DNA of 64,000 nucleotides from Agelas oroides (Eukaryota > Porifera > Demospongiae > Agelasida > Agelasidae). Made by a program: the position numbers and the translations under genes. Of this stretch, positions 2,134-61,348 are shown one piece after another. The stretch is taken from positions 4,619,292-4,683,291 of the forward strand of contig OX422202.1 of NCBI GenBank assembly GCA_949130485.1. Reading direction: 5' to 3'. The notes beneath the pieces were generated by a model, which worked only from the letters and a program-made list of their open reading frames with translations, made no database searches and was not told the DNA's origin. Position 1 is the first letter of the stretch, and each line of letters starts with the position of its first letter.

Positions 2134-2714
2134 TAGTCTCGTGCCCAGCTGTCTACGCCCCCTGGCGGAGAACGTCTGGTGGTTTGATTTGAATTTCTTG
2201 TCACTAATACCTTTCTCATCTGGAATATGAGATGAGCAATCAAAGCGCAGAGCGCACAATTAAAAGTCATACGTCATTGAATTGCAAAATGGCCCTGCCT
2301 CGATTTTATTCTCAGGTTTGCAATTTTTGTGTGGAAGAGAGAACTCTGTGCATCAGTGCTCCATTCTTTTATGGACTGGGCTACAACGAACCTACTTATG
2401 AAAAACTCAGGCAGTTTGCGGGTTTGTGTGAGGGAAGGATGTCACCAGCTGTTTTAGCCCAAGGTTGACAAATAAAATCAGGAAGTTTGCCACTCCTTTC
2501 ACTAGCGACTGATGCTTTGATGGTTAGGGAATGTTGCTGACTGCTTGAAGGTGAGGCCACACAACAAATTGAGCAGCAAACAGAGAACAGGTCTGATAAT
2601 TGCATTCTTGCCACAATCATTACGTGTTCCATGGGACACACCTTCGTGACAAGAAATTCAAAGCAAGCCACCAGACGTTTCCGCTGGGGGCATGGACAGC
2701 TGGGCACGAGACTA
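2134..2714. mobile_element. Mutator-like MITE, 581 bp
   Basis: The ends are inverted repeats starting TAGTCTCGTGCCCAGCTGTC. The element is flanked by a perfect 9-bp duplication GTGTTAGGC (2125-2133 and 2715-2723). A 9-bp duplication is the hallmark of Mutator-type transposition. No transposase is encoded; the short ORF inside (2232-2468) looks random. Confidence 0.85.
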
Positions 2715-2780
2715 GTGTTAGGCACGTTCCCAGGCCCCACCCAGCTTTCTGTCGTGATGGAAGGCCTGGGAGCAAGGCTA
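2715..2780. mobile_element. Mini-MITE interrupted by the 2134-2714 element
   Basis: The sequence TAGGCACGTTCCCAGGCC...GGCCTGGGAGCAAGGCTA has the family termini. Its first bases (TAGGC, 2129-2133) lie upstream of the 581-bp element and were duplicated when that element landed, so the younger element sits inside the end of this one. The outer flanks ATGCTGTGT and ACTCTGTGT agree at 7 of 9 positions, as expected of an older target duplication. Confidence 0.6.
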
Positions 2781-3070
2781 ACTCTGTGTGCCTTTAGACC
2801 ATATATGAATAATTATGATGAAAGCTTTGATATTTACCGGCTTCTACAGGGCCTTCATACAATTGCCTATATGTACCTGCTAGGGGGTATAAACACCCTT
2901 GGAATCCTTGCAACGTTATTTGGTAGACCTGGGCGATAGTGTACCGATTAACACTGCCTTCCTGGTTCATGTAAGGGTATACTACCTTGTACTTTGTTAC
3001 TGACTTTCCGGCCTGAACAGAGACTGATTACAATATACATGGGGAGGTCAATGTCTATCTATGTAGCCAG

Positions 3071-3386
3071 TAGTCTCGTGCCCAGACCCCACCCAGCTCA
3101 TACGGAGAAGAAGGGGTCTGGTGTCATAATTTTAAATCCTTGGGCTAGCTCCAGAAGCATGGATCAACCAATGAAACTCTGCATTGAATAATGTGGGAGC
3201 GAGAACAAGTACTCTTGGCTACCTAGTTTCGTGCCCAGACCCCAGCCAGCTCACACAAGGACAAGGGTCTGCTGTCACAAGCCTGAATCCTTGGCCTTGT
3301 GGAGATATTGAAACCTTGTAATAGGATTACAAATTTGTCAGTGTGAATAATGAATTTCATAACATCACTTTGAGCGGTGTGATTGA
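3071..3386. mobile_element. MITE whose right half is inverted
   Basis: Bases 3071-3212 match the left half of the element seen whole at 51906-52696 (less its inner insert). Bases 3224-3386 match its right half in reverse orientation, beginning TAGTTTCGTGCCCAG. The two halves meet at the same internal point of the family sequence. The bases before the inverted half (CTTGGCTACC) are the reverse complement of the left flank (GTAGCCAG). The right target duplication was therefore carried along in the inversion. Confidence 0.7.
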
Positions 3387-4032
3387 AGAGAGGGAAGGGA
3401 GGGATACCAACATAAGAGAAGTTGTACTAGAAAAGGTCTCACGATCCTTCAGACCGACCCCCACTCCCAACCTCTATCTACCAGCCTTGCCCTCTGTACC
3501 TGCATGCCACAAGCAATCCAGGAATGTGAAGGCCCAAGAACAAGGCTATGGTAAAGCCATAACAAGCAGCTAGTCTGGTTGAAACTGAGAATATAGTCAC
3601 ATCCCCAGACCAAATATTTTTTGCATGTGCTCTGTGGCCTCATCAGAAAATAAGGTCTGGACACTATTCACTAGGAAAACAGCAGCAACTTGACTTAATA
3701 ATTGCATGTAGATTGGCACCCAGAAATCTGCAAGCTGGCTATCTGTGGTGACATAATTTACTTCATAGAGCAATCTGATTGGTGCGACATACCAATACGC
3801 TTTATAATTAGGCCCCAATTTCCCAGTGAAAAGCTGTCCAGACCCTATTATTTGGGGGATTCCTGGGGGAACTGAGCATGTGCAAAGAGTGTGTACCCTG
3901 CTCTCTTCTCCACCCATACACGAGAACCTGGGAATGGAGGCTAGTTATACACATGTGCATGACATCCAGTACAGATGATAAAAGCACGAAATTGTTGGAG
4001 TTGGAATGATTGTAAATTGAACGAGTTTCATA

Positions 4033-4160
4033 GTACACTTCCTGCTTCCTCCTCTTTCTCTTCTCCTCCCTCCTCTTTCTCTTCTCTCTCCTCCTCCTCC
4101 TCCCCCTCCCTCCTCTTTCCTCCTTCCTCTTCCCCACTTTCTCACTTCTTCCTTTCTTCC
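4033..4160 (+). repeat. CT-rich polypyrimidine tract
   Basis: About 130 bases of nearly pure C and T, mainly CTCCT/TCTTC. It ends in CCCTAG like a 3' splice site, but I could not recognise the sequence after it (4163 on) as an exon. Confidence 0.8.
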
Positions 4161-4254
4161 CTAGTGGTGTCAACCTGAATCTGGTTTGTTCAGGAGGACC
4201 AGAGTTACATTACAATCCAGTTGGAATCCTGGCAAATATGTGTGGGAGATAAAG

Positions 4255-4440
4255 GAATTGAGATGAAAATAGAGGAAAGTGAAAAAAGGCCGGCAGTTGA
4301 ACCCAGGACACCTCTGGCTTGAGCCGCCTGAGGCATTCAGTACCACCTGTGCAGTACATATAGAGGATTGTGAGGGTTGACAGTTGTCCAGCTGTTGTGG
4401 CTCAGTGGCAGAGCATACAGTTGCAGTATAGTACAAACAC
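4255..4440 (-). mobile_element. tRNA-derived SINE copy
   Basis: Read on the minus strand the sequence has a degenerate B-box (GGGTTCAACTGCCGG) after a tRNA-like head, and it shares about 100 bases with the SINEs at 32775-33075. A second tRNA-like start, GTGGCTCAGTGGCAGAGCAT, lies at 4397-4416 on the plus strand. The copy is old and partial. Confidence 0.55.
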
Positions 4441-7400
4441 ATCCCATTTCATGGAAATCAACAAATTTTCATCCAACTTTTTGTACAGTGCATGTCACCA
4501 TAGGCAATACTATTAGGGTATAAATATTCTCTACTCGTAAAGTTCATATTTCATGTTGACAAACCTACTCATGCACTCTTGACGTAGCTACATATTGAAA
4601 GGGTCAAGTGAGTCAGTCCATGCAAGGAGCTATCCAAGTTTACCTAGATGGATTCAGGTTTGCAACTGTCCATAAGAATTATAAATAAGTTTAGAGTATT
4701 AGAGCATCCTGAAAGTCACTCTCGCTTTTTTCCCTGCGTTCTGCTTGCAATACAATTATAGAGGATGAATGCATTAGTGACACAGATGTCAATTAGATGA
4801 TGGAAGAAACTTTTCCGAAAGTGAATAGTCTTTCTCAGGACCGAGTGATGTTAATCTAATTATCAACAGCCCCCATATTCTTATTTTATTCCTTCACTAC
4901 AGGGATCAGGAATCTTTGATTGTTTCACATGACACATGATTGTACCTTCCGAGTGTCCCAGATAGCTGTAGACAAGGGAGTTACACAACACTTGTCACTC
5001 CATGACGTGTTGTTTTAGTTGACTATAACTGTAACTAAATACCCTTTTAATATGGCCTTGGAACTTTCAGTGAATCAATTACTGACTAAATTATCTGGTG
5101 AACTGGAGACTGCAACTAAATACTTTTTAGTAAGGGTGTTGGAGTTTTAGTACTATAACTAACTAAAAACAACCTGTTAAACTGGATACAACTGAACCAA
5201 AAGTGTAAGCTCAACAACACTACACATATACAATTGGCGACTGACTCACAGATGTAGTAACCTGTCCCTTCTGTGGTCCTTTTATGGTTCGTAGCAGACT
5301 GTGGTGCCTTGACATCATTTGACCATCCCCCATCAATTAATCGATTTAAGTCCTCCTGTGGCAACAATACCCCACAACAGAAGATCTTCAAAGACTTGGA
5401 AATTGTCACAGAAGACCTTGTAGCCGTGGAATAAGAAAGGCTTCACCATGTCATCAGAACATGGTATGCAAGACCATGCTCACTTAATTCCTCCTTCCCA
5501 GTATATCAATCAAAATCTATAGTGTACCAGAGTACTATCTGCTATGACCCAATACTTGAACCCCCATTTATAGGACTTTTCTCAATTCTAAGGTAGCATT
5601 TTCGACCCTTTCTACAGCTACATCATTTTCCTGTTTCTGGTCCTACAAGTCATTTCAAGATCATCAGGCCACCAAGCTTTTTTTATTTCAGACCACAGTG
5701 GAAAGAAAATAGCAAAATGTGTCACGGAGGCTGCACAAGACTACAAAACAGACACTTGTGCAGCCAAAGCATATGTAGAAGCTTGGATGGTGAAAAACCA
5801 CTGAGTCAGGTTGTGTAAACACTGGTTGCATGCTGAATACTGTTAGTCTGATCAGTAAGCCAGGTAACTCAGTGAAATTGACCTGCACAGAGACTAGAAA
5901 CAGGAAATTAACTTTGTGTGGCCTAATAATCAATTTGTAGTGGCCTTATCTGCCTCTGGTCCCAACATGTTCAGGTTGCCTCCTCATTGTTCCCACTGAA
6001 TGTGGTTAAGAGAGCAGAGCCTCTTTCATGAGAGATCAAGTCAATCACAGAGGGTAGTGTAACTAAGTATAATTTATAACAAATCCAGAATTTCTAGGGA
6101 AATTGAGCATGCACTGTGTACTACACTCTTTTCTCCACCCATGCATGAGAGCCAGGCTATCAGATTACAACTCCAGCATGAGATATATCTACAAAGTACT
6201 TAGTTGATACATAGTGCAAGTCACACACACCACATACAAAACACACTGTAGCCCCCCCTCTCCCCCACATGCACACACTGTTCACCAGACCCGATAGTCA
6301 TTCAAACATAATTTTAACAAGACTAAGTTCCTACTATGATCACTTAGTTATTGTTGCAAAAACTATAAATAGTTACATTCCCCAGACAGAACATGATCCC
6401 AAAGTGTGAATGTTGCTTTGTCTGGGAAATTAACTTATTTGTTGGATGTTGCACCCAGCAACCCACTGCCAAACCCATTATCACCTCCACCCATTCCACT
6501 TCTGTTATTCCAGTTGCAAAGCAACATACAATTTCTGATGCAGTTGAAATGAGGTTTTATGATACTTAATGTTGGGGTGGGGGGCGTGCCGGTCTGGGTC
6601 TTCATGGTCCTGGGCACACAAAGCATTTTATGCGCATGCGTCATATGCAAGTACCTCATGCACTCACTTGCCAAAGAAAGATAAAGCAGGGGGCTGTTTC
6701 TAGACATACAGTGCCAGCAGGGTATAATGCCATCAGGCTAAAAAGGCCATGGGCCAAATGGCCCCATGGCTCTAAATGGAGTTATAATCATTCTTGATCC
6801 ATCGCTAGTAACTGTGAGTAAGCTGCCGGCGTATATGTCGTTAGCCAAACAGGCACTGCTCCATGAGGCATTGTCAGCAATCCTGCATGAAAAAAAAAGA
6901 GGAGTTCATTATGTGTGTGCTTATGGCAAGGTTGGGCAAAAAATTACACCCCAAGTGGAAAGGAAAAAGTATAGTATAGCATAGTATAGTATAGTAATGT
7001 TGAGAAAAGCCATAAAGGTGCATGTGTATGCCCAATGTTTTAGCCTGTCTTTCCAAGCCTAAGAGGACTCACTGAAGTTTGACACCACAGCTAGATACAG
7101 TTTGTCATTGAAGTGTCCTTGGTTAAAGCACTAGGGCTGAGAGGTAATCTACGGAGACTATATAGGGCCAAACATTTATCACGAAATGGGACCTATGGTG
7201 ACACAGGATTTTACAGTGCCCAAACTAGCTATTTTAGCATGAAGGTACTTACATTTGCTAAAAATGAGAATATGCGATTTTTTTAAAACCACTGCTAACC
7301 TGAGTTTAGCCTCATTCCCGGGCTCATTCTAAAAATCGGAGAAAAGGGCCTGGTATCCACTGTTCAGGCATGGGCTTAATTAGTGCGTGGGCAAGGGTGT

Positions 7401-8290
7401 GTCAAATGACGGCCAATATCATGTGGTTATAAACTATATGACGTTATATATATTGGCTTTCTCTTAGTCAAACTTCATTTTTGGTGCTACTCAAGTGAAG
7501 ATGAATGCAGGTCATTGTGGAGGCAAGCACAAATGAGTTGACTTCTGACCCTACTGGCAATAAATGTTTGCATATACTTAGTTGTAGTGATGGCAGGGAC
7601 GGAATGGGGATGAGTTTAGCCTGTTAAATAACACTTGTCACATGTCACTGTGCGTATATAGGTAAGTTTGAAAGTCAGCTTGGCATACAAATGGAGTTAA
7701 GTGCAGTTGAATAGTGCTCTATTTCGAGTACAGCTCAACACACGCACAGCACACAGATGCCTTCTACAATCTCTGTGTATCCTGGGACAGGTAAACTTAA
7801 CCTAGTAACAGTATTCCAACCAGTGCCCAACTTATTTGCATGCAAAGTGCATACAAACGTGCAAAAGGAGAGTCCCATCTCACAGTATTGTAGCCTAACA
7901 AGGCTTCAGAAGTCCCTGCAAATTGAGCCACACATTTCCACTTGCAAATGCTCTCAGAAAAGGTAGGAAGGGGCGGTACTAGTTGATGAGTGATCATGAA
8001 TTTTGTCAAGGGATGCCACACATTTCAGTATTCTAGGTAGCTATACTCTACGAGTCAACAGTAAACATGGACTTGTAAGTGGACTACACTTAACGTGTCA
8101 GCATAGCAGCTTTGATTGAAGCTTTTATCATGCATTGTCCAATGTTGCTACTCCGTAGTCATGTTCCTTGGCCTTAGGTGATGTTGCTGTTAGCCCACAT
8201 ACAGTAGACACTGACACTCCAGCCATCCTTCCTGATCGGCTCTTCTGGTCTGAATGAGTCTGCATGAGTCTGCATGAGTCTCTGGTCTGC
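4441..8290. other. No gene seen; old repeats
   Basis: I see no convincing exon on either strand. The stretch contains TTAGTTTTAGTT-type sequence (5010-5175), a TAGTA microsatellite at 6970-6998, and the start of a TAGCCTCATTCCCGGGC element at 7308 whose right end I could not find. A CAC-rich patch lies at 6225-6280. The ORFs here lack coding character. Confidence 0.5.
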
Positions 8291-8297
8291 ACAAGTA

Positions 8298-9378
8298 CAG
8301 TGCTCCAAAGCAAAAGAGCAAAACTTGTGAAATTTTTCAAATTATATAGTAAAGCCCTCCTATCATCTTATTTACACATACAAACGGTACAAATCATCGC
8401 TATTTGCACGTACACGGCCTGCGCTGCGAGTTTTAGCTTCTCTATATACTTGCCATACTTAAGAAGAGCTACAGATAATTTGTGATGTCACAGATGTGCA
8501 CTATGACACCAACAAACCATCAGCCAGCTAGAATTTATCACATTCAAACCGAGTATTAGCTAGAAGTGTTCGGTTAACTAGGCTTCGTGGAAAACGTGGC
8601 AAGCTCAACTACAACGGTTCTTCTCAGAGCCAACTCACACTTCCTTGATCACCCAGCAACCAGGAAGTGAGTCCTGGGAGTCAAACAGTACTGCGCAATG
8701 TCAGCAACGTGGCTCTACCACGAGAAACTGTAAGATTTCATACTCTGCACCTAGAACCAGTGAACGCAGATCAATGAAGACAGCAGCCATACTGTTCACC
8801 TAGCTAAGCGTTGTGGTTGATGACATCGTGAAAGGAATGCCCACCCATGAACGTCACTAAAATGGCTGAAAGTTACCATTTCCACGCAAAAGCACTCCCA
8901 TACCTTCTAGGGAAGTTTTTATTCTAAGAAAAGTACTTGAAACAAAACTTTAACCTATCTAAAAGCCATCTTTCAAGTAATTCCTGTTAACTCAGAGTTT
9001 TGTGGCTATACTATGCTAAACACTTTTGCCCCTCAAAAATCAATTTTTATAGATTTTCTTGACAATGCTTGGGAGTGAAGCCTGTTGACTACCCTCATAA
9101 TAAACTTCCAAGTAAAGGCTACTTTCACACCGCATCTGCACACTTAATTTCAAGAAGCAGGGCTAAACTATGCTAAACACTTTTTTCTGAATGGGCTGAC
9201 TGTTGGCAGCCATATTGATGAGGAGACATCACGTGACACTTAATTAATTTAGGGAAAGCATAACAAGTGTTGAGCCATTCCTTTTATGTACTTTGTAAAC
9301 ACATTAGATGTTTGTATCAAGCACTGCAGCTAAATGTTTCCAAAATTGAAAGTTTTGCTCTTTTGCTTTGGAGCACTG
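8298..9378. mobile_element. TA-flanked element, Tc1/mariner type, 1081 bp
   Basis: Inverted repeats of about 31 bp beginning CAGTGCTCCAAAGCAAAAGA lie at both ends. Each end is bordered by TA (8296-8297 and 9379-9380), the target of Tc1/mariner/pogo elements. No transposase ORF is present, so the element is non-autonomous. Confidence 0.8.
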
Positions 9379-9591
9379 TATATTTTTTCCAAATATGTTT
9401 GGTTTGGTTTTCTTTAGTGAAAAGAACAGTTTTGTTGTTTTAGGTCAAGACCAATTAAAAGGGACTGCCTTGTGAGTGACACTGTCTCTGAAGACTCTCT
9501 AGCATAGTGCTGTTCCTGCTATACTGTCAATGTTGCTGAGCTATCTAGCTTTGCAGATTTACAAGTTGTGCATTGACTGGAAAAACATTAA

Positions 9592-9790: not shown

Positions 9791-9909
9791 AGACCCTATT
9801 TTTTGATGGACACAAGGCATGCACAATATATTTGGTCTGGGGCAAAGACTGGAAGGATAATTGCCACACAATAAACATGATATCCATACCCACACATGCA
9901 TACCTGCAA

Positions 9910-9917
9910 AACACACA

Positions 9918-9982: not shown

Positions 9983-9984
<2 letters not shown>

Positions 9985-11030: not shown

Positions 11031-11651
11031 TAGCCTCGTTCCCAGGCTCTCCCCGCGCGCGAACGGAAAATCGAAAGAAAGGGGGGAGCCTGGTAAAATT
11101 TATCACGTGAGAAACGTCATAGGTAGAGAGATCTTAATTACATGTGGGCGAATGAAAGAACTCGCCCACGCTTTATGGACAGAATATACTCGCGATAGCT
11201 TTATGGCCGACAGAATGGGACTAGACGGCACTATGCTACATTACCTGGCAGTACGGAAAGCTATGGTGAGCGTACACAGACCCGTACATTCAAAAATCAC
11301 ACTAACCTACTCGCTTACCTGGCAGACTGACCGCTGTACACCCCGGAGAATGGCTTTCAAGGCGCTATTAAACTCCAAGGCGGCCCTTTCCTAGGCTTTG
11401 CTCAAGTTTTCTCTGCGCTTATTGTTCCAAAAAACTGCCGGAACGGGCTCCTACTAAACACAGCTACGTGTACTGTCAATTATGATCAACTACGTGCGTG
11501 GGCACATCAACAATCCGCCTACGCTCAATTAAGTCCTCTCTACCCTTCTCTCTACCCCTACGTCACTCACATGATAAATTATCCCAGGCCCTCTCCCGCT
11601 TTTCCGTACTGCAAGCGACGGAAAGCTGGGCGGGGCCTGGGAACGAGGCTA
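11031..11651. mobile_element. Mutator-like MITE, 621 bp
   Basis: The termini are TAGCCTCGTTCCCAGGC and its reverse complement. A perfect 9-bp target duplication TGTAGATGT lies at 11022-11030 and 11652-11660. The 95-codon ORF inside (11107-11394) shows no recognisable domain. Confidence 0.85.
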
Positions 11652-25115: not shown

Positions 25116-26404
25116 TAGCCTCGTTCCCAAGCCATTCCCGCCTCCAGTTTTTGATCGCTTGCAGTATAAAAACGGAGGGGAAGGGGGTCACTCTAAAAGT
25201 AGGAACGAGGAAATGAGAAATGGGAAATGAGGAAATGGGAAGAAAGCACATTGTATTTCACTTCAGCAAACTGCTGACGTTTTGTTACTGTAGTCACGAT
25301 CATCAAAAGTGATGTCAATGTCCATCCATTGGCACTCATTGAGAGATCATCTTTGTCTTACAGTTGGCATCAAATGGGTATGTATGCAAGGGCATTCAGC
25401 ATGGCATTCATGGCATCATGGTCTGCAAGCTAGATGTATATGTACTCTACCTTTGGCCACTTGTTAGCGTTCTTGAAGTTTGTTGAATCTGTGAATTGTT
25501 AATACTTCGTTCCAACTTCTACATTTTGAGTTTGTTCAGTTTCTTGGATTGTTCTAGATATATGTACGTATATTTGTCTCATACATACACTATTATTTAC
25601 AACAGTATGTATTATCCAAAATTGATATACATGCAAGTTCACAAAACACCTGTTTGCAGTCATTCTTCAGTGGATACACACACTGGCTCTGCGGAGAATA
25701 TAATTATTGTGTGTGAATTATAGTTGCATGCACTGGGTGAAGGAGGCAATGTACAACAGCTTTATACCTGTGTGAGACAATCCACAAAGTAGATATATGC
25801 ACACACTCCATGCAGTTCTTCGCTAGAATTTGCATGTTATTGCTGACTTATTCTTCTTGCTTTTCTCACCAAAATGGTCTAGTCTGGGCCTACCTCCTCT
25901 AGGTAATACTTGAGCTACTTTGCACAACATGTACACTCTACTGTCCTCTTTTACAACTCACCACTTGTGTCGGAGTACCCGGCGTTGCAGTTCCATTTCC
26001 CCATTTCCCCGTTTCCCATTTCTTATTTCCCATTTCCCGTTCCTACTTTTAGAGTGACCCAGCGGAAGGCCTGGGAGATAGAGTCACGTGCGTGACGTCA
26101 GGTAGACGTGAGGGGGGCGGTGCCCGACGAAGAATCTCGAGGTCCTTCTTGTAATACCTTGTCCAAGAACTTGAGACTGTAACATTCGAAAGACAGCGTC
26201 AATACAGCTCGTTGTTTGGTAGACTCGAGGCTAATCAACGCAAAGTTTGTGAGTTACAACGATCGGGCACCGCCCCCCTCACGTCTACCTCACGTCTACC
26301 TGACGTCTACCTGACGTCACGCACCGTGACTCTTTCTCCCAGGCCTTCCCATCCACTGCAAGCGATCAAAAACTGGAGGCGGGAACGGCCTGGGAACGAG
26401 GCTA
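25116..26404. mobile_element. Mutator-like MITE, 1289 bp, internally palindromic
   Basis: The termini are TAGCCTCGTTCCCAAGCC and its complement, with a perfect 9-bp duplication TGCCCTCGT at 25107-25115 and 26405-26413. Inner inverted blocks lie at 25190-25240 against 25985-26060 (GAAATGGGAAATGAGG type) and at 26055-26130 against 26260-26345 (around GACGTGAGGGGGGCGGTGCC). Other elements have probably landed inside. Outside the element, the frame left of it (from 24967) continues in phase on the right to about 26575 if the element and one duplication are removed, so it may have hit an old exon. Confidence 0.85.
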
Positions 26405-41366: not shown

Positions 41367-41428
41367 TAGCCTCTTCTCCAGACTCTTTCCCGTGCACGGA
41401 AGAGGAAATGAGCCTGGGGACGAGGCTA
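41367..41428. mobile_element. Mutator-like mini-MITE, only 62 bp
   Basis: TAGCCTCTTCTCCAGACTC and GAGCCTGGGGACGAGGCTA face each other with about 24 bases between. A perfect 9-bp duplication TTCTGTAAC borders both sides. Confidence 0.85.
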
Positions 41429-46606: not shown

Positions 46607-47237
46607 TAGCCTCATCCCCAGGCCCGTTTGAAAAATCGGAGCGAGGGCCTGGTATCCACTGTTTGCGCATGCGCTTAATTTCCCGACATTCTGGGAATAC
46701 CGGATAATACCGTGTTACCTCCGCGTGCCGTGACGTCAGGTACGTGTATTTTGCTGTATATTTAGTCATACACTGCTGACAATGGCTATTTGTGTGCAAG
46801 GCCTGGATTCTGCCGTCTTGTATGCCTTCCTGTGACTTCAAGGCGAAGCGATGGCACTAAAACACGACAAGAAAGCATCTATGAAGCGTTTATACTTGGG
46901 TCTTATGGGTTTTGGCAAGTTATAATTTGTGTTACGAAGTTATAGCTTACATTTGTAGTGTGAAGATGGTCCTGCGTCGACAGCGCAGTTCAAGCGATAA
47001 GCGCTAGGGTCAGAAGAGCTGGGCAAAGGGCTAGGAGAGCAGCGCTCGCCTCTTCGGCGTTATAATATCAAAGTTCATATATGAACGTCATAGTTCATGA
47101 CGACATGATACTGGCCGTCATTTGACACATCTTTGCACAATTTCACGTGATCTGTACACACTAATTAAGCACATTCGCGAACAGTGGATACCAGGCCCTC
47201 TTCTCCGATTTTTCGAACAGGCCTGGGGACGAGGCTA
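46607..47237. mobile_element. Mutator-like MITE, 631 bp
   Basis: TAGCCTCATCCCCAGGCC ends with a 10-bp near-perfect duplication ATAT(G/T)TAGGC (46597-46606, 47238-47247). The subterminal repeat GAGGGCCTGGTATCCACTGT is shared with the lone end at 7308. Confidence 0.8.
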
Positions 47238-48636: not shown

Positions 48637-49490
48637 CGAGCAAAGTAACCGCACCCCAAGATGCTCACAGGAGGTTAGTGCTGCAGGTTTACCTTGGCTC
48701 AAACACTTGAGAGTTCAGTGCTACACAAGAAACCACAAACTCTGAACTCTAAGGCTCTCTACTTCTGGTCTTGTGGCTAAGTAGCAGTGAACTAGCCTTG
48801 TCCCCAGGCCCCGCCTTCCGTGTATTTTCTGTCGCTAATGTAAACATCATCAAACATGTGCTACGGTAGGACACGCCTTACTGCAACCGTTGATGTCAGC
48901 TGACAATCATGCAAATGTGTGCAAGATCAAGCAAGAGCGAGTCGAACAAGCGATGCTGTAGTATGCTATCTTCCATGTTTATCTATCCAGTTCGAATGCA
49001 CACTGTCTATACACAAATTCTGACAGATTGTCTCAGTTGATCGGGACCCAAGCCAGTGCCAACAGACGATCGGGGAGTTTGTCTCAATAACCTGTATGGG
49101 TAAACAGCGCTCACCAATTTCGATCGTCCACCGATTTCCTGTAAACGCGCTAGAAGACAGAGACGATGCCATCACGAGCTACTCTACCATATTGCATAGT
49201 CGGCACTTTTGGCCTCGTGCACATGTGATGGGATCATGTTGGCTCCTCAAAATTTTGAAAGGTAATGGTCAACAGAAAATGCGTGGAAACGCTACCAGGC
49301 CCCTTTCCCGATTTTTCGGGCGGGGCCTGGGGACGAGGCTAGCAGTGAACTTGGTTTCCCAAACCTACTAACAAAGATTTCACCTATGTATAGCACTGAA
49401 CTATAAAGTGTTTGAGCCAAGGTAAATCTGCAGCACTAACATTCCGTGAGCATCTTGGGGTGTGGTTACTTTGCTCAAACCAGGCATACT
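48637..49490. mobile_element. Element with 87-bp inverted ends, MITE inside
   Basis: The left arm 48637-48725 and right arm 49395-49490 are inverted copies (GAGCAAAGTAACCGCACCCC... to GTTCAGTGCTA). The 549-bp MITE at 48793 lies between them. The outer target duplication is not clear. Confidence 0.75.
48793..49341. mobile_element. Mutator-like MITE, 549 bp
   Basis: The ends are TAGCCTTGTCCCCAGGCCCC and its complement, with a perfect 9-bp duplication GCAGTGAAC (48784-48792, 49342-49350). Confidence 0.88.
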
Positions 49491-51905: not shown

Positions 51906-52696
51906 TAGTCTCGTGCCCAGACCCCACCCAGCTCACGCGAGGAGAAGGGGTCTGGTGTCACAAGTCGAAATCCTTGGGCTAGCTCCAGAAACGTGGAGCG
52001 ACCAATGAAATTGCAGAGCGGCGTTTATTGGAATAATGCGGAAGCGAGAACAAGTACTTCAATCGTACCGCTCAAAGTGATGTTATGAGATTCATTATTC
52101 AACACTGACCGATTTGTAATCCTACACTAACAATTACAAGGCTTCAACACTTCCGCAGAGGAGGGTGGAAGCTAGTAATTAGCGACGCGCGATCACGCGA
52201 AGGTAGCAATTACTGCTACGTGATGACGTAATCATAGTAAAAGGTGAAATCAACTTACACTACGGCGCCCTCGCTTGTTTGAAACAAAACTCGCTCAGTG
52301 GATGCTGCCAGGTGAGCTCTAGATCGACCACTATAGCTCTTCCTTATACACAAAGCATTTGAGTGTTTCCTTGGGGAATCCCGTGAAAGATTTTGCGCGT
52401 CATAAAATGCCATAGCGGTCGATCTAGAGCTCACCTAGCAGTATCGACTGAGCGAGTTTTGTTTCAAACAAGCGAGGGCGCCGTAGTATAAGTCGATTTC
52501 ACCCTTTACTATGGGCCTCAATGGCAGCTCGTATGATTACGTCATTCACGTAGCACTAATTGCTACCTTCGCATGATCGCGAGCGTCGCTAATTACTAGC
52601 TTCCAACCTCCTCTGACACTTCTGCAAGCCCAAGGATTCAGGCTTGTGACACCAGACCCTTTCCTCATGAGAGGGTTGGGTCTGGGCATGAGACTA
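51906..52696. mobile_element. Mutator-like MITE with a second one inside
   Basis: The ends are TAGTCTCGTGCCCAGACCCC and GGGTCTGGGCATGAGACTA. The flanking duplication is C(A/G)CGAAAAC, 9 bp with one CpG-type change (51897-51905, 52697-52705). Without the insert the element is about 320 bp, like the copy at 32145. Confidence 0.88.
52156..52615. mobile_element. Fold-back Mutator-type MITE, 460 bp
   Basis: It starts CAGAGGAGG(G/T)TGGAAGCTAG. Its terminal inverted repeats are about 190 bp, leaving only a short centre. The 9-bp duplication is ACACTTC(C/T)G (52147-52155, 52616-52624). The uninterrupted site is known from 32331 on. The long ends and 9-bp duplication fit Mutator-like elements, though the ends differ from the TAGYCTCG family. 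Confidence 0.88.
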
Positions 52697-53953
52697 CGCG
52701 AAAACACTGGTCAGCTTTTATGCTCTGTCAGTAGTTTTCTGGTTGGTCAATCGTCATGTGATTGAAAAACAGAAAATCGGCTTCTCGAAATGTGGTACGG
52801 AGAATGGTTAGCCCTTCATCGGATTCCACACCAGCTGTATATTACAATTCACATGCTTGGAACCACTATTAGACTGTCAATGCTGCTTCAAGTTCTGGTT
52901 ACATGTACACTTGAGAGAAACATTCTTCTTAGGCTTAGGTCTAACTGTAACTGAGCAAAAAAGTACAGAAACAAGACTTAAAAAACATTAAAAATGTAAA
53001 AGGATGTAGGGATGGCATGCCAAAAAGTATGCAAACAAGGTAGGGATGATATAATAGTGAAGGTAAATTTACAAAGCCCTATCCCTACATCTTTTTACAT
53101 TACAGTTGCAAAATAATGTGAAAACAATGCAGGGATGAGGCTTTGCAAATTTACCTTCACTATTATACTAGTAAGATGATATCATCATCGTGGGGCGAGC
53201 CTGAGCGAGCAATACATTGCTGATTTCATGGCACACAAACCATGCATAACAGCAGGGTTTGTCATGTCTGCTGTTCCATGAGCGCACGTGGTAAGCAAAA
53301 CTTCATGCAGCCAAGCACTTAGTTGTCACCAGATATAGATGATCATACATGTTGCCAAATTGCAGTCATTTCTCAGGTCAAGGAAGCTACTACGGCTACA
53401 CACAAACTTGGACTAAACTTCACACTGAAGTCATGAACTAAATCTCTGGAGCTTAATTATGAGTGTTGATTATGCATGGCCCTTCCTCAAGCGACCTAAA
53501 CTCTACTGGGCGTAATTTGTACCGTCTGTGAGTAGCCTGCCCTTGTCTGTCACGGTCCGCAGTTGCCATTCGTGCGTTAACTTGAGTCGTCTTCGCTCTG
53601 AGTTTCTTTCACGTCGACGCTGCGTTCTGACGGTAGTCCTTCACCGAGTATCCGACGTTCATTCAGTCTTCGTGAAATATTTAAATGCGCTCATTTAAAA
53701 TTTACGGTATATGGCCGCAAACAAGCACGTACGTAAACACACTTCCGCAATGCAGTCCCGCTAGTGCAGTCGAATCGCCAGCGTGCGTAAAACGGGGACT
53801 TTAATTGCAATGACGTAATCCAAGAGGCACTATTTGGAGCGGGAAATGCAGGAGCGGTTCAGCTGTGTTTGGAAGGCTGGGGTTGGAGACGTAGGTAGAA
53901 ATCCTGACTAGAGGTAAGCTCAGCTGCTAGTACTAAGATAATAGAATGTAAGA

Positions 53954-54027
53954 ATGAGTACTGAAAGCAAGTTTAAGGTTAAACAGGGTCCAGGAAACCG
54001 TCGTAAGTGTGGGGCATGTGGTCATGG
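53954..54027 (+). CDS. Zinc-knuckle mini-protein, exon 1
   Basis: The exon encodes MSTESKFKVKQGPGN, then RRKCGACGHG, and stops two bases into a codon before GTAGGA. The basic stretch with C-x2-C-x-H is a zinc-binding knuckle half. The next exon at 54274 supplies another Cys. The product is 53 residues. It could be a nucleic-acid-binding peptide of the surrounding mobile region. Confidence 0.5.
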
Positions 54028-54273
54028 GTAGGAACGTTTTATGCTCGCTTTCCATACTAGGGTAGTGGACACAAACGATATATGCGCTGCTAAGAACTAC
54101 AGCAACTGTAGGTAACACACATGAATTTTGGAGGTTGTAGGTGCTGGCTACAGCAAATGTGCCACCAAAATATGATCTAACCATTTGATTATGTGGGGGT
54201 CTTCACTCCATCATTCATTGCTGGAGCCTATCTACTTGATATTTTGGGGATATTTTACTTCTATTTGCCCCAG

Positions 54274-54361
54274 ACTACTCAACAAGTACAAGACTTGTGT
54301 CCCAGTGTTTCCACAGAAAGACAAGAATACAAGTTATAACTATTACCAAGAGCACATTTAG
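54274..54361 (+). CDS. Zinc-knuckle mini-protein, exon 2
   Basis: After acceptor CTATTTGCCCCAG the frame continues LLNKYKTCVPVFPQKDKNTS to YYQEHI and TAG at 54359-54361. The junction GG|A restores Gly. The motif as a whole is C-x2-C-x-H-x8-C. No known family recognised. Confidence 0.5.
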
Positions 54362-55479
54362 ATTTTGATGCAATCTAGCTATTGCTTAAGAGCATTCAAT
54401 CACTGTGTAGCATTCCGCATGCTAGGTGTTTCAGGACACTGTGGGGGTTATAAATGCCTTAGTAGCATGCCGAATGTGTGCTGTGCAGGCCATCATTGAT
54501 TCAGCCATAAATTTGGTAATGATAATTACTTCCTGTTCTCCAGCAGAGTGTGCCTGAAAGACCAGTTGAGTATATTCACCACACAGGCCTTGTTGGAGTT
54601 ACCAAAAGTTGCCAGAAATTCCCATGGTAACTCTTTTATCCCTGGACTGAGCCCTCTAGCCGGAATTCTGCTCAATCATTATTGTTGTCTCACTGCAACC
54701 TGTGTTCACCTGTTTACTGTTGATTTGTATCCAATTACATGTAAACATGATATATCAACCAAAATGAGTTGTGTGTGAACTTGACAGATTGAACAATATA
54801 TGCACGTACACCATAAAAGCAGTATTTGATACCTATGTTTTTGGAACATGCGCTGAACTGTTATGCCACAGTGGACACTGATTTTTATGGTCTAGTTTTA
54901 TGAAATATACCCAGTCAGATGACAGCATGCCTTTGGAATAGTTCCAGTAGGTGGCTACGGCAAATGTTCCAGCTTTGTTGGCACAGACCCGGAATATCAC
55001 TCTGCAGCTGCAGTATCTTTGCTCCTAAAGCTGAAATAAGTCCTAAACTTGCTACACATGAAGGCCTACTTATGCATTGCATGTCCTTCTATTTTTATGC
55101 TATTTCTGTATTGGCTTCCTGAGTTACAGCGGTTAAAATATTCATGCAGCTTCCGTGCATTTTCGCGCACCTCCGTATATTATTGCACACGTACGCACGC
55201 CGCGTTGTAAATAAATTTGTACGGGCAGGTATTGGCGTTACGTACGCTGGCGATTCGACTGAGTGTGGGGCTCGCTCAGGCTCGCCCCAATCATGTTTCT
55301 CTCAAGTGTACATGTAACCATAACCCTAGAACTCGAAGCAGCATTGACAGTCTAATAGTGGTTCCAAGCATGTGAAGGGCTAACCATTCTCCGTACCACA
55401 TTTTACGTTTTTTAAGTCTTTTGTTTTGTGTAACCCCGATACAAAAGCCCTGGTAGGCATGGTCAAACTACTACTTATC

Positions 55480-55872
55480 TTACAAAGTCCGCTTACTTAG
55501 ACAAGCTGCCCAATAATCCGCGCACTCCCTCATCGCCGGGCCATCGAAGATCCTGCGGAGGCTTCCGTTTCCCTCCTCCTCAAAAGTCTCGACAACTGGT
55601 TTGCACCGAACAAATTGTTGGAGACTCTTCAGGTCTTGTACGGCGCTGAAATACATCGAATTCTTGGGCTTAGATTGGCCCTGCTTAGGCTTGGATGGCG
55701 CCGACTTGGGTGGCGCCGACTTGGGTGGCGCCGACCTGGGTGGCGCCGACTTGGGTGGCGCCGACTTGGGTAAGGACGACTTGAGCGGCACTGCCACTGT
55801 GGGTCGCAATCCCGGTATCATGTGTCGATTGGAGCCAAAGGGGGACATGTACAATATTTCTCGAGTAGCCAT
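55480..55872 (-). CDS. Pro/Ser/Lys repeat ORF, 130 residues
   Basis: The ORF begins MATREILYMSPFGSN and has a PPKSA repeat (six units, residues 36-62, a 15-bp DNA repeat). It then has a well-composed tail with VQDLKSLQQFVRCKPVVETF, IFDGPAMRECADYWAACL. A GTAAGA donor overlaps the stop, so it may be the first exon of a longer gene. The linker-plus-domain layout looks genuine. Domain not recognised. Confidence 0.5.
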   Translation of the reverse strand: MATREILYMSPFGSNRHMIPGLRPTVAVPLKSSLPKSAPPKSAPPRSAPPKSAPPKSAPSKPKQGQSKPKNSMYFSAVQDLKSLQQFVRCKPVVETFEEEGNGSLRRIFDGPAMRECADYWAACLSKRTL

Positions 55873-55904
55873 GGGCCAGGAAAGACAATCCTGTTGCTGT
55901 CAAC

Positions 55905-56045
55905 CGTGAGTCTTGTCACACGTCCGCGAGTCAGCAAGCCTGTTGTCACACGTCCGATCCGCGAGTCAGCAAGCCTGTTGTCACACGTCCGATCCGCGAG
56001 TCAGCAAGCCTGTTGTCATACGTCCGCGAGTCAGTTTTAAAGCCT
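55905..56045. repeat. 30- to 35-bp minisatellite, four units
   Basis: The unit is GTCACACGTCCG(ATCCG)CGAG then TCAGCAAGCCTGTT. It lies just upstream of the 55872 ATG, in the probable promoter. Confidence 0.9.
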
Positions 56046-56129
56046 GTTGTCAACCGTGACAGGAAGCCGAGCAGGCGCGCGCCGCCAATTACACTTAGAT
56101 CACGTGATACAGATGGGGCGTATAGATAT

Positions 56130-56183
56130 TAGTCTCGTGCCCAGACCCCACCAGCGAGAGGGCGGGGTCTGGGCACGAGACTA
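56130..56183. mobile_element. Mutator-like mini-MITE, only 54 bp
   Basis: TAGTCTCGTGCCCAGACCCC and its complement are separated by 14 bases. The flanks TATAGATAT and TATAGAAAG agree at 7 of 9 bases. Confidence 0.75.
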
Positions 56184-56186
56184 TAT

Positions 56187-57013
56187 AGAAAGTCACAAAA
56201 AAGTTTTCTGAATGAAAACAAGTGCATGTAGGGATGGAACCCTCAAAAACCAACCAAACTAGATGGGAATGACACCACAACAATTTCACACCATCCCTAC
56301 ATCTTGTGCCATTTTGCCAACTATGCTTTGTGTTTGTTAGTTGTGTTCATAGGAGGGTTGTGGAAGGCAGTGGGATGGGTAGTGCTGGGTATGGAGTGCA
56401 TGTTGATGTGCATGGGGGGTGAGTTATGTTGTGGGTGGCTGTGATGTAGTTGCTATGCTGAGAATGGCAGGTATGGTCTGTCTTGAATTAGTCTTGCAAG
56501 CCAGACCCTTTCTGCGCAGCACCGATCGCTTTCAGTATGCGGCACACAGAGGGAAGAAGTTTGATGTTTGGATTTACAATTTCACTTCAAAGCATTTATG
56601 ACGATTCTTAGTGCCTTCCTCTGCGTGCCGATACTGAAAGCGATCTGCACTGTGGAACGGAAAGGGTCTGGCTTGTGAGACTAGTCTTGAATGCAGAAAC
56701 TGTCGAGTGCATGAGCTGGGTCTGTTGGAGTAAGTTATGTTGTGAAATTTTATTGCTGCTGAACATGGCAGATATGGATTGTCTTTATGTAAAAGGCTGT
56801 GGAATGAGCAGCGCTAACTACAGCTAGTATTCATTTAGTGGGTGTGAATAGGCTAGAGAGTTTACTGGTGTGCATAGTTGGCAAAATGGCACAAGATGTA
56901 GGGATGGTGTGAAATTGTTGTGGTGTCATTCCCATCTAGTTTGGTTGGTTTTTGAGGGTTCCATCCCTACATGCACTTGTTTTCATTCAGAAAACTTTTT
57001 TGTGACTTGTTCC
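56187..57013. mobile_element. Element with about 135-bp inverted ends
   Basis: Arms 56190-56325 and 56873-57010 are nearly perfect complements: AAGTCACAAAAAAGTTTTCT, GTAGGGATGGAACCCTCAAA and onward to TTTGCCAACTA. The near-identity implies recent activity or gene conversion. A related lone end is at 24456-24490. A 195-bp MITE sits inside. Confidence 0.85.
56489..56683. mobile_element. Mutator-like MITE, 195 bp
   Basis: The ends are TAGTCTTGCAAGCCAGACCC and its complement, with a perfect 9-bp duplication GTCTTGAAT (56480-56488, 56684-56692). A worn relative lies at 57135-57190. Confidence 0.9.
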
Positions 57014-57189
57014 TGCTCTTTTTTTTTTTTTTTGTATTGCTTTTTAGGAATGGTAAGAGAGAAGTGACATGGGAGGGTAGGCCGAGGGGAAGATGCATGG
57101 TGTGTACAGTATGATAGTAGAAAGAGCTAAGAATTGTCATAAATTCAAACGCTTTGAAGTGAAATCGTCAATCCAAACATCAAACTTCG

Positions 57190-57789
57190 GGGGGTTTAGA
57201 AGTACAGTCCAAGCAAAGCCTCATAAAAACCAAGTGAAAAGCAGATGAGTTTAATAAGGCTTTGCATGCAAGCTTATAAATCCTGTGCTCATTTCACGTG
57301 GACTACTAATGGGTTCACCGAAAAACCCTCCATAGACTGTCACCAGAGTATTGAGTCGTAAGACCCCATTACAGAACTGTTTGATGCATGGTGAGTGGCT
57401 ATAGTCTAAATGGGTTTGAAACGAACGCATAGGGGTCTGTGGAGCTGAACAACCGCCAGTTCTGTGGCCACCTCTAGTGCAGAAGTTTGGAATGAAGCCA
57501 TGCACTGTTGACTCGGTGCTACTAGAGTTTGAGTATACCAAGCTACCAATAGGCTGCCACTTGCTTCGTTGGAGGAATATGAAGACTCGGGGACAACACA
57601 AAAGGAGGATGTTAAGAAGACACCAGCCAAAGTGCTACCATCAACTCGCAGTAAACATTGTATGTGTACTATATGCATGTAAATGACTATAACAAGCAAA
57701 TTTGAAATGTGAAAGTTGACAATAAAACTTGAAATTGAATATCAGTGGCTAGTGTTCTAAGTCATATGAAGTACTTGATGGTTAAAACA
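57190..57789. other. No clear gene; poly(A) signal on plus strand
   Basis: An AATAAA lies at 57720. ORFs on both strands here have no recognisable domain. Confidence 0.4.
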
Positions 57790-58269
57790 CTAGCTGGCAT
57801 AGTACCGTCTATACCACTTGAGCTTGGCTTTTGCAGCCTTCAAATTAGTCATACGAGCTGCTGCCCTTTTTTTGTCAGGGTTCCTCCAATAACTACTACG
57901 GGAGGATATGTGGGAAGCTGCCCTTCCTTTCTCAGGGTCCTCCCAATAGCGGGTATGGGAGGATATGCGGGAAGCTGCCCTTCCTTTCTCAGGGTCCTCC
58001 CAATAACGGGTATGGGAGGACGCCCTTTTCGTCTCAGGGTCCTTCCAATAACAGGCATGGGAGGACGCCCTTTTCGTCTCAGGGTCCTTCCAATAACAGG
58101 CATGGGAGGACGCCCTTTTCGTCTCAGGGTCCTTCCAATAACAGGCATGGGAGGACGCCCTTTTCGTCTCAGGGTCCTTCCAATAACAGGCATAGGAGGA
58201 CGCTTGCCTTTTTTTCCCCTTTGTTTCGCAGGTAGTTCTGCTTGTCCTGCGCTCGTTTCTTGCGGACAT
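57790..58269 (-). CDS. Tandem YWKDPETKRA repeat protein
   Basis: I start at MSARNERRTSRTTCETKGKK, the second ATG of the frame, since the 13 codons before it look uncoded. Then come five units of SSHACYWKDPETKRA (45-bp DNA repeat, 58005-58215), two SSHTRYWEDPEKGRAA units, one SSRSSYWRNPDKKRAA unit, and a basic tail KAAKAKLKWYRRYY. The protein is about 159 residues, very basic and highly regular. From memory, similar Y-DPEKKRAASR repeats occur in many predicted proteins of sponges and cnidarians, often with transposon-like domains. The identical units towards the N-terminal side suggest recent expansion. Function unknown; binding of nucleic acid is a guess from the charge. Confidence 0.7.
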   Translation of the reverse strand: MSARNERRTSRTTCETKGKKRQASSYACYWKDPETKRASSHACYWKDPETKRASSHACYWKDPETKRASSHACYWKDPETKRASSHTRYWEDPEKGRAASRISSHTRYWEDPEKGRAASHISSRSSYWRNPDKKRAAARMTNLKAAKAKLKWYRRYYAS

Positions 58270-58319
58270 TATGCATATTGCGTTCGATGTAAAGTGCAGC
58301 ACAACCACGTCAACTGATC

Positions 58320-59740
58320 CACGAAATCAGATTTGCAAACTCCAACACTCAATTCTCACCTCTGTACTACGAAGTACTGAACCACGTGCTCAGTTGAACC
58401 CTGGTGACGTAATTATGAGTAATATTTAATTCGAGCAAAATGGCGTGTAGCAGCTAGCGTAAGTGTGAGATTACCTGAGAATGGCCGACAAGTTTGAGTT
58501 CTTTCTTTTAGACCGATAAGTGGCAGGTACAATACCTAGTGATTTGTCCTGTTGTTTTGCGTTTGAATCGTTGTAAAAGCTCCAGCCGTTGTCGTGCTAT
58601 CGTGGTGAGAAAAAGAAGTCAGAAGATAGACGATTTGCCTTTTTTAGCGACTTGATGTCAGGTATACTTAGCGATGCTTTCCAGCAAATTTAACGATCCT
58701 GTTGCCCATGGAAGCACTCGATAATGTCTGATATGGCTCATGGAGGCCGTTGACTTATCTAACGCGGACATTTCGAGCGTGTCATTTGTGCACTTTGAAT
58801 GTGGCCGCCATTTTTTTTCGGGGTCATCCCTACATATGGCGTACTACCGTACGCCATGATATAGGCCAGCGTTTCTGCTACCAGCTAAGCCTGCCAACCT
58901 GTTAATCTTCAGCATATGTAGTAGAGCCGTCTAAAAGTGCCAGCAATATAGTTAATCTGGATTATATTGTATCTCTCGTGAATTTCCTTCAGAATACTTG
59001 TGAAGTTGTATTATTCCTATTATAATGATTGACATAACAGGTTAGTACAGCCACACCCTTCACAAAGAGAGGAAGAGTCTTGTCACACTACAACTAATGA
59101 GTTGTCACTGAAAAACTATTGTACTGCACAACTAAACCTGTCTTGGCTATCATGCATGTCTAGAATGCAAGAACAGGCGGCTAGAGTAAGAGCATGTAAC
59201 TACATAAAATTCGAACCCGGGCGGAATTTACCACCCTGCGCACACTGCGTACACGTGCACGTTGACATTATCCATTATGCAATGTTGCTAAGCACGCACG
59301 TGACCAGTTATTTTCAGTATGGTTCAATAATTTTGCCTGGACTACGGGCTTCTATTGGAGTTGCACGCTCTTACTCTAGCTGCCCGTTCTTATGCACTCT
59401 TGTGCACGTCAAATGAGTACCATCTACAAAAAGCACAATTGGTTATGGAAAATTTCTGCTGTGGCAGTGACTTGATAGTTGCAGTTGGACCAGATTCCTC
59501 CCCATTTTGTGAAGGTTGATTTCTATGCATGTGAACATGAAACGAATCAGAATTCTGGCATGCCAGGGACTAAAGCCAAGACTAGTAGTGGTGTTTGGGG
59601 CCCCAAAATGGCCTCAGGAGCCATCTTAGAGCATCAAATTCGTGTGGGAGCAGGCCCGTAGCCAGCATTTTTAGAAGGGGGTTTACATGGGTGTCAGATT
59701 TGTATGCATGCATGCATACGCATACAAGACTAGGGGGGTC
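58320..59740. other. No clear gene
   Basis: Contains several short GT-flanked plus-strand candidates (58440-58670) that could be untranslated exons. A weak palindrome lies at 59160-59400 (GGCTAGAGTAAGAGCATG against its counterpart). Confidence 0.4.
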
Positions 59741-59752
59741 TGGGGGCATGCT

Positions 59753-59975
59753 CCACGCTACGCTACCGAAAGAAAGTCATGTACTGGTGTTCATGAAAGT
59801 CATTCAACCGCTGCTGTTCAAAGACTCGAGAGTGTTGCAGTCTGTCACTTAGTGTCTACCCCATTCAATATATCAAAATTAATAAGTGGCAATGCAATAA
59901 TAAAACTCAACACTGTACTATAAAGTAGGAGCATACACACAAAGCAAAGGATAGAGTCAGTATCAACTGACTTGC
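59753..59975. repeat. Long direct repeat, copy 1
   Basis: From ACGCTACCGAAAGAAAGTCA through AAGACTCGAGAGTGTTGCAG to ATAGAGTCAGTATC(A/G)ACTG it repeats at 62653-62887 in the same orientation with few differences. The following TGCTCCCCCAGAA belongs to the 20553-type repeat. Confidence 0.9.
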
Positions 59976-60045
59976 ATGCTCCCCCAGAATTTTTTTTTTG
60001 AAATTACATGCTCTGAGATCGCTTCTGAGGCCATTTTGGGATGGA

Positions 60046-61244
60046 AGCAGAGTCGTAGTAGCCAAATGGCTCGTGGAGTATTGCATCCATTTTTGCCTAA
60101 CCATGTATGCATTTGCTAAGCCAGCCTACTTCGAATTTCCACGAGAGAAGGTACTAAGTCTAATGTTGTCTAGAGTGCCTGAACTTGCGATTTATTTACG
60201 CATGTCATTTCATCTCAGCAGTGTTACGCGCTTTCCGCACTGGCACAAACTTGCACAGCTCCAACTCGTTCTCAACAGCAGTGAGCCTAGTGCACCACTT
60301 TCAAACAGTAGGACACTTATCTTGTGGAGGTCAAAAGGGGGGTTCGAGCGAAACCCCTTCAAAACCCCCCTGCCTACTGGCCTGGGGAGTATGCCCCTAG
60401 CTTATTCATTTGATTCTCAGAGATTCAAGTTAAAGTAAAGGTCAAATAGCTGTGACAGTCTATAGTCATTTAGCTACCATAAGACTGATGATCAGCTAAG
60501 AAACCATTTTGAAAGGAAACAGCAAAACAGTGCATACTCAAACGATCACATTGCTAGGTAATGCGTAGATCAGTTTGATTGTACTCGGTACAGTATATCA
60601 TACACAATCAAGCACCTCCTAGGAGAATAAAAGAGCAAAATTTTTTCACTGCCTCAAGGTGCAATTAATGGACAACTTCCCTGCCACCCTCCTTAACAGA
60701 AAAACTCTCAAACACACACACACACACACAGACAGACAGCAGTCTCACATCAGATAGCATGATAGAGTCAATTACTGGGTACATTATCACCAATTAGCAC
60801 CCGCAAGAATGTTACTCATGTACAGTGTGTTGCAGGTAGTAACAGGACAAGGTTGTAGCCATGGACACCACAGTGTGTGCGGGTAAGGTCGTAGCTGAAC
60901 TTGAAGAAATGATGCTATTATACAAAGCCAGAGGAGGTTGGAACGTATCATGTGATCTTACATGTGGTCAAGTTTACTATAGTCATATCGATTGTCAAGA
61001 CTAGGTAAATCTGGCCAGAGAAAGTTCTCACCTAAACATTCTCAACAATTGAAGACCCGTACCCGACAGTCCACCCTTCAATTTTGGAAAGACAGCGCAA
61101 GTGTACACACAGAGCATGACAGAGCTCCCCACACTCCAAGAGCACCACAAGATTCCAAGTACTTGCAGTATATGTCCACAACCTAAATATGTTTGAGTTG
61201 GTACCAGTTTGCCTACTCCCATTTCGCTGCTGTGCTGCGCTGAC
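60046..61244. other. No clear gene
   Basis: ORFs without domain. A short CA repeat lies at 60712-60732. Confidence 0.4.
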
Positions 61245-61270
61245 TTACAAACTACAAACACTAACATTCC

Positions 61271-61348
61271 TAGTCTCATTTCCTGACCAAACTTTAGCCG
61301 CGCTCCCCAGCCCAACCCACACAAAAATTTGGTTTGGGAATGGGACTA
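61271..61348. mobile_element. Mini-MITE, 78 bp
   Basis: TAGTCTCATTTCCTGACCAA and TTGGTTTGGGAATGGGACTA face each other. The flanks TAACATTCC and CAAAATTCC agree at 7 of 9 bases. It lies in the possible 3' end of the next gene. Confidence 0.65.

What the first reader, a model, noticed from the sequence alone, without database searches (positions are those of the whole stretch)
2134..61348. A swarm of TAGYCTCG-CCCAG elements, 54-1289 bp, with 9-bp target duplications
At least ten elements share ends near TAG(C/T)CTCGT-CCCAG(G/A)CC: 2134, 11031, 25116, 39665, 41367, 46607, 48793, 51906, 56130, 56489, 61271. Perfect 9-bp duplications at 2134, 11031, 25116, 41367, 48793 and 56489, and 8-10 bp near-perfect ones elsewhere, point to one Mutator-like transposition mechanism. 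Internal sequences differ completely, so the transposase seems to need only about 18 terminal bases. This is a high density for one family in 64 kb.
Basis: partly seen in the sequence, partly recalled or inferred. Interest (0 to 1): 0.75.

Follow-up and report, generated by a model that had tools for sequence, protein, structure and literature searches.

The report
Swarm of tiny 9-bp-duplicating transposons
This genome carries thousands of copies of the ends of very short, gene-less jumping DNA pieces that copy about 9 bases of their target when they land; they are a dense case of a known kind (MITEs), with some members only about 50 bases long, and the enzyme that moves them is still unidentified.

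Summary
All eleven listed places are facing pairs of TAGYCTCG..CCCAG ends; six have perfect 9-bp duplications, the rest 8 bp perfect, 10 bp with one mismatch, or 7-8 of 9. Window ends: 36 against 0.96 expected; genome: 26,906 exact ends, reversed control 0. Of 92 facing pairs 16 have perfect 9-mers, against 3 of 5,000 mispaired ends. They are non-autonomous TIR transposons (MITEs). 'Internal sequences differ completely' is wrong: subfamilies share bodies. New: 1,301 places of 40-70 bp have both exact ends, and 49-53-bp members show 8-10-bp duplications; three different elements stand in a row on one 9-mer. The transposase is unidentified. Mutator fits the duplication length, but none of 21 MULE loci inspected (of 119 matches) lies between such ends with a matching duplication. 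An 11.1-kb element with these ends holds a broken CxC5/KDZ-related gene among nested insertions, yet a recent KDZ family has another 3' end. Mutator membership is undecided.

The parts
2134..2714 (.). element, 581 bp, TSD GTGTTAGGC (9, perfect); ends TAGTCTCGTGCCCAGCTG; 74-bp TIR at 89%
11031..11651 (.). element, 621 bp, TSD TGTAGATGT (9, perfect)
25116..26404 (.). element, 1289 bp, TSD TGCCCTCGT (9, perfect); longest overlapping stop-to-stop frame 119 aa
39665..40023 (.). element, 359 bp, TSD AACTCAGG (8, perfect); 75% identical over 395 columns to L021:2084-2470
41367..41428 (.). ultra-short element, 62 bp, TSD TTCTGTAAC (9, perfect)
46607..47237 (.). element, 631 bp, TSD ATATGTAGGC/ATATTTAGGC (10, 1 mismatch); 75-bp TIR at 89%
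48793..49341 (.). element, 549 bp, TSD GCAGTGAAC (9, perfect)
51906..52696 (.). element, 791 bp, TSD CACGAAAAC/CGCGAAAAC (1 mismatch); its first 238 bp and last 52 bp match the two ends of an 11.1-kb element at 94% and 90%
56130..56183 (.). ultra-short element, 54 bp, 20-bp perfectly complementary ends, flanks 7 of 9
56489..56683 (.). variant element, 195 bp, ends TAGTCTTGCAAGCCAGACCC / TAGTCTCACAAGCCAGACCC, TSD GTCTTGAAT (9, perfect)
61271..61348 (.). decayed element, 78 bp, flanks 7 of 9
2719..2780 (.). decayed 62-bp pair; its left end (TAGGC) is part of the TSD of the 2134 element
63917..63933 (+). left end; no partner with a matching TSD seen in the 3.4 kb beyond the window

Best explanation
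The elements are non-autonomous cut-and-paste DNA transposons (MITEs) of several subfamilies. They are mobilised in trans by one unidentified eukaryotic transposase that recognises a short terminal sequence (TAGYCTCGTNCCCAGRC) and joins both ends to target strands staggered by 9 bp. Shown: end pairs, the 9-bp mode, number of ends, subfamilies, ultra-short members with duplications. Inferred: a DDE-type enzyme, action in trans, and that two abutting ends of about 25 bp suffice. Superfamily: Mutator about 0.4, KDZ-related about 0.2, another about 0.4.
For: 31 nonredundant supported elements: 9 bp perfect 16, 9 bp with 1 mismatch 8, 8 bp 3, 10 bp 4; 26,906 exact ends, control 0; (subfamilies; TIRs of 74-93 bp; 1,301 places of 40-70 bp; 127 of 30-39 bp), controls 0; insertion L069:247 with the unoccupied site in the related copy L048; 11.1-kb element C1:17528865-17539972 with TSD GGGGGAAGT whose ends are those of window 51906-52696.
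Against: No transposase shown to belong to these ends. Most of the 147 facing pairs have no recognisable duplication (31 nonredundant ones do): decayed, nested or wrongly paired. The genome count is of ends, not insertions, and includes segmental copies (L011/L020; a roughly 17-kb repeating array on C1). The 30-70-bp places were counted without flanks; duplications were seen only in loci that I held. 30 of the loci come from the first 0.64 Mb of contig C1.
Confidence: 0.85

Rival explanations
1. A Mutator-like (MULE) transposase moves them; they are Mu-MITEs.
For: Mode of 9 bp (8-10) fits MULE duplications of 8-11 bp (PMC6446971 passages). At least 119 MULE domain matches in the genome, many in long open frames.
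Against: 0 of 21 MULE loci inspected lie inside such a pair with a matching duplication (8 of the 21 had only 1.5 kb on each side). The one MULE with defined ends (L047) has GGGATTCGC TIRs and a 10-bp duplication. G/C-rich first three bases are usual in arthropod MULEs (PMC13359780 passages); here TAG.
Confidence: 0.4
2. A KDZ-related transposase with a CxC5 cysteine cluster, coded in many exons, moves them.
For: The one long element found with these ends and a perfect 9-bp duplication (11.1 kb) holds, on the minus strand, a gene with a CxC5 match over the curated cut-off (27.9 against 26.9 bits, E 2.8e-6). A homologous exon series lies on C4 (L072/L062). KDZ-type (Zisupton) elements are multi-exonic (PMC9297572 passages) and about 9-11 kb in Cryptococcus (PMC12810828 passages).
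Against: The gene is broken and lies between inverted minisatellites, beside DNA that looks by eye like a nested LINE and a Helitron relative, so it may be a separate nested element; none of its pieces matched the PF18758 transposase domain. The C4 copy has no such end in 4.2 kb upstream. A recent KDZ family (3 equal-scoring copies, 2 compared) has a 3' border at CACCCGG and no TAG end in 5.7 kb of its 3' side. Published KDZ duplications are 7-8 bp (PMC12730594 passages), 4-8 bp in PMC12810828. The 9-mer at the 11.1-kb element is repeated three times in a row, which weakens it as proof of that pair.
Confidence: 0.2
3. Another superfamily (P-like, Merlin, a hAT variant, or an undescribed one) supplies the transposase.
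For: The ends match no family that I could test. The P-type search (PF21787) and the Merlin-type search (PF12762) did not complete. Not excluded.
Against: hAT: 8-bp duplications are expected (recalled) but the mode is 9; 0 of 8 hAT loci inspected (of 150 matches) lie inside such a pair.
Confidence: 0.4

Closest known systems
MITEs (miniature inverted-repeat transposable elements)
   Same: Short, many copies, terminal inverted repeats, target duplications, no coding capacity, several subfamilies sharing ends.
   Different: Many places are only 40-70 bp (1,301 with both exact ends), little more than two ends.
Mutator-like elements (MULEs)
   Same: Duplication of 9 bp, range 8-10.
   Different: Ends start TAG, not G/C-rich; no MULE gene between such ends with a matching duplication in 21 loci.
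KDZ (Kyakuja-Dileera-Zisupton) transposons
   Same: A CxC5/KDZ-related gene lies inside the only long element found with these ends.
   Different: Published duplications 7-8 bp, CA..TG termini for Kyakuja (PMC12730594 passages); a recent KDZ family of this genome has a 3' border at CACCCGG.

Membership tests
MITE (non-autonomous TIR DNA transposon) | inverted terminal repeats in facing pairs | tested here: met
MITE (non-autonomous TIR DNA transposon) | target-site duplication of fixed length | tested here: met
   16 of 92 pairs perfect at 9 bp (14 distinct) against 3 of 5,000 mispaired
MITE (non-autonomous TIR DNA transposon) | no transposase gene inside | tested here: met
   the largest window element has no frame over 119 aa; the other accepted window elements are at most 791 bp
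MITE (non-autonomous TIR DNA transposon) | high copy number | tested here: met
   26,906 exact ends
Mutator superfamily | 8-11-bp target duplication (PMC6446971) | tested here: met
   mode 9, range 8-10
Mutator superfamily | MULE transposase between the same ends | tested here: inconclusive
   0 of 21 loci inspected, out of 119 matches
Mutator superfamily | G/C-rich first three terminal bases (most arthropod MULEs, PMC13359780; not strictly defining) | tested here: not met
   ends start TAG; the L047 MULE starts GGG
KDZ | 7-8-bp target duplication (PMC12730594) | tested here: not met
   mode 9
KDZ | KDZ transposase between the same ends | tested here: inconclusive
   one broken CxC5 gene in an 11.1-kb mosaic element; another KDZ family has a different 3' end; the CxC5 genome search (PF18718) did not complete
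hAT | 8-bp duplication (recalled) | tested here: not met
   mode 9
hAT | hAT transposase between the same ends | tested here: inconclusive
   0 of 8 loci inspected, of 150 matches
P element / Merlin | their transposase between the same ends | not tested
   searches PF21787 and PF12762 did not complete

The most novel reading that the evidence does not exclude
A eukaryotic transposase whose minimal substrate is just two 15-25-bp ends set head to head. Elements of 49-53 bp (perhaps down to 31 bp) transpose as units, up to a thousand times or more in one genome. It also re-uses the 9-mer beside an existing copy as target, building rows of different elements separated by the same duplication. The enzyme would be a MULE or KDZ lineage with unusual ends, or an undescribed superfamily.
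Probability: 0.35. Interest if true: 0.65.

Novelty: new member of a known kind. Interest (0 to 1): 0.45.

Why it matters
A family with about 27,000 exact ends in 259 Mb must have shaped this genome. Members of about 50 bp bear directly on how little DNA a transposase needs between its two ends, which could be tested on plasmids in a laboratory strain once the enzyme is known. By eye, the ends also read as 'SLVPRP' and 'GLGTRL' peptides in many translated frames, so gene models of this host could carry them.

Tried and rejected
Literature: six spellings of the 15-base end gave 0 papers (the held PMC library only). Searches on MITEs or DNA transposons in sponges and on smallest MITEs listed nothing on this family.

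A structural role for the short inverted repeat GYCT-N7-AGRC inside each end: the two variable bases are linked (C/G 75 and T/A 33, against T/G 10 and C/A 8, of 172 ends; the remaining 46 are other pairs), but single-strand folding is reached by 19, 40 and 46 of 200 shuffles for three end types. Subfamily descent can explain the linkage, so it is not used.

Rfam: 0 matches at gathering score in the window; the 8 weaker matches at E up to 0.1 are all below cut-off and ignored.

L049: ends at 1300 and 3805 enclose a MULE domain, but the flanks do not match. L071: the end there leads into DNA that looks by eye like a Helitron, not into a transposase of this family.

Dropped rows: ends within 12 bases of a locus border, pairs were accepted only at 8/0, 9/0-1 or 10/0-1, so other lengths cannot appear in that list (one search is the open length test). 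One of the three 8-bp cases is a CA repeat (L021). The variant 56489 lies outside both scans and was set by hand. The general end search also listed two poor candidates in L050 (4 of 16 terminal bases mismatched), which I discounted.

Full report
Where it is. The window is G000:C20:4619292-4683291 in a 259.3-Mb assembly of 141 contigs. One frame has a weak spectrin-repeat match below Pfam's cut-off (E 0.001) and others look by eye like retroelement pieces, so I take it to be an animal. A sponge is my guess from death-domain-like frames in the loci; this is recall, not a test.

The observation. A scan of both strands found 39 ends scoring 13 or more of 17 informative positions. With up to 3 mismatches TAGYCTCGTNCCCAGRC occurs 36 times against 0.96 expected (0 of 100 shuffles). 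Six have perfect 9-bp duplications: 2134, 11031, 25116, 41367, 48793 and 56489, whose ends are a variant, TAGTCTTGCAAGCCAGACCC. The others are 8 bp perfect (39665), 10 bp with one mismatch (46607), 8 of 9 (51906), and 7 of 9 (56130, 61271).

Genome-wide. The exact 17-mer occurs 26,906 times (13,233 forward, 13,673 reverse) and its reversed control 0 times. In the window and 38 fetched loci there are 92 facing pairs closer than 3 kb. Perfect flank matches are 2 at 6 bp, 0 at 7, 3 at 8, 16 at 9, 2 at 10, 0 at 11 and 1 at 12. One CA repeat gives one each of the 8, 10 and 12, and two of the 16 are duplicate loci. Among 5,000 mispaired ends the counts are 5, 2, 0, 3, 0, 0, 0. With all loci held, 31 nonredundant elements out of 147 facing pairs pass: 24 at 9 bp (16 perfect), 3 at 8 and 4 at 10. 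The duplicated 9-mers lean to G at position 1 and C at 9, T at 3 and A at 7, a weak palindromic preference (24 sites).

What the elements are. They carry no gene (the 1,289-bp element has no frame over 119 aa). They fall into subfamilies that share more than the termini: L013, L016 and L017 are 82-93% identical over their length; window 39665 is 75% identical to L021:2084-2470; 25116 shares 362 columns at 87% with L022. So 'internal sequences differ completely' is not right, although unlike subfamilies share little beyond the first 17 or so bases. Window 51906-52696 matches both ends of an 11.1-kb element on C1 (246 columns at 94%, 52 bp at 90%), the usual relation of a short derivative to a long relative.

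Ultra-short members. Nine of the 31 supported elements are under 80 bp; L014 (49 bp), L038 (50), L033 (51), L028 (52) and L011 (53) have duplications of 10, 8, 9, 9 (one mismatch) and 9 bp. Genome-wide, 1,301 places have two exact 15-base ends with 10-40 bp between them, 40-70 bp in all, and 127 places are 30-39 bp; both reversed controls are 0. These counts include segmental copies (for example the same 53-mer at C1:52299 and C1:236067, which are loci L011 and L020 with the same flanks). The flanks of the 30-39-bp class could not be fetched, so their insertion is not shown.

Rows of elements. At C1:17.5 Mb three different elements follow one another, each separated by GGGGGAAGT or GGGGGAAG: the 11.1-kb element, a 316-bp element and a third of about 300 bp whose right end I set by eye. 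The simplest reading is repeated insertion into the same 9-mer. In the window, the duplication of the 2134 element overlaps the left end of the decayed pair at 2719. This suggests insertion beside existing ends; its frequency was not measured.

Unoccupied site. The insertion at L069:247 (= L050:6647) interrupts a frame (OTU-like, recalled) beside a MULE gene; the related copy L048 reads through the same place without it (CCACACCC, then TAGGTGATG). The right end of that insertion was not found in about 12.3 kb.

The enzyme. MULE: 119 domain matches. I inspected 21 loci (8 with 1.5-kb flanks, 13 of 5.6-7 kb). None had a pair of these ends with a matching duplication around the transposase. A general search for inverted ends with exact 8-10-bp duplications in 13 MULE and 8 hAT loci found one clear case, L047: GGGATTCGCTTTTTTC, 41-bp TIR, duplication CTCTGGCAAT, plus two poor candidates in L050. 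KDZ: inside the 11.1-kb element lies a broken gene on the minus strand with a CxC5 match (27.9 bits, cut-off 26.9). Its pieces match an exon series on C4 (tblastn E 6e-8 to 2e-16). No piece matched PF18758. The gene is bracketed by inverted minisatellites and nested elements, so ownership is unproved, and the C4 copy has no such end in the 4.2 kb upstream. PF18758 itself has 34 matches elsewhere. Two copies of a family with three equal-scoring copies are identical over 2.9 kb and on to a sharp 3' border at ...CCTGAACCGGGTG, with no TAG end in 5.7 kb, so at least that family has another 3' end; its 5' end was not seen. P-type, Merlin-type and CxC5 searches did not complete.

Verdict. A real, dense swarm of MITE-like transposons with a 9-bp stagger; a known kind. 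The new points are the scale, the class of about 40-70 bp, and the row of three at one 9-mer. Mutator membership is plausible from the duplication length alone and is not established. Papers: passages were seen of PMC6446971, PMC12730594, PMC12810828, PMC9297572, PMC5718144 and PMC13359780; all others only as search listings.

Noticed in passing
G000:C1:about 1.26-1.43 Mb: Ends recur with a period of about 17.35 kb over several units, probably a large tandem array (listing only).
   Followed up: no
window 56190-57008: Two perfectly complementary 137-nt arms with 545 nt between them, enclosing the 56489 element and starting just beside the 56130 element.
   Followed up: partly
window 210-1415 +: Open frame with a reverse-transcriptase-like motif (IGIPMGTDCAPLVADLFLF), Penelope-like by eye and recall; no Pfam match.
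   Followed up: partly
L047:1949-6759: 4.8-kb MULE element with 41-bp perfect GGGATTCGC TIRs and a 10-bp duplication.
   Followed up: partly
L074-L077 (G000:C21:914200-919900 and C14:5412010-5417700): KDZ family with copies identical over at least 2.9 kb and on to a shared 3' border; terminus CACCCGGTTCAGGAAC.
   Followed up: partly
L065:570-596: 27-bp near-palindrome TAGCCTCGTTCTCTGGGAGCGAGGCTA, shorter than any pair counted.
   Followed up: no
L071:5017-9070: Long frames that look by eye like a Helitron replication protein and helicase.
   Followed up: no
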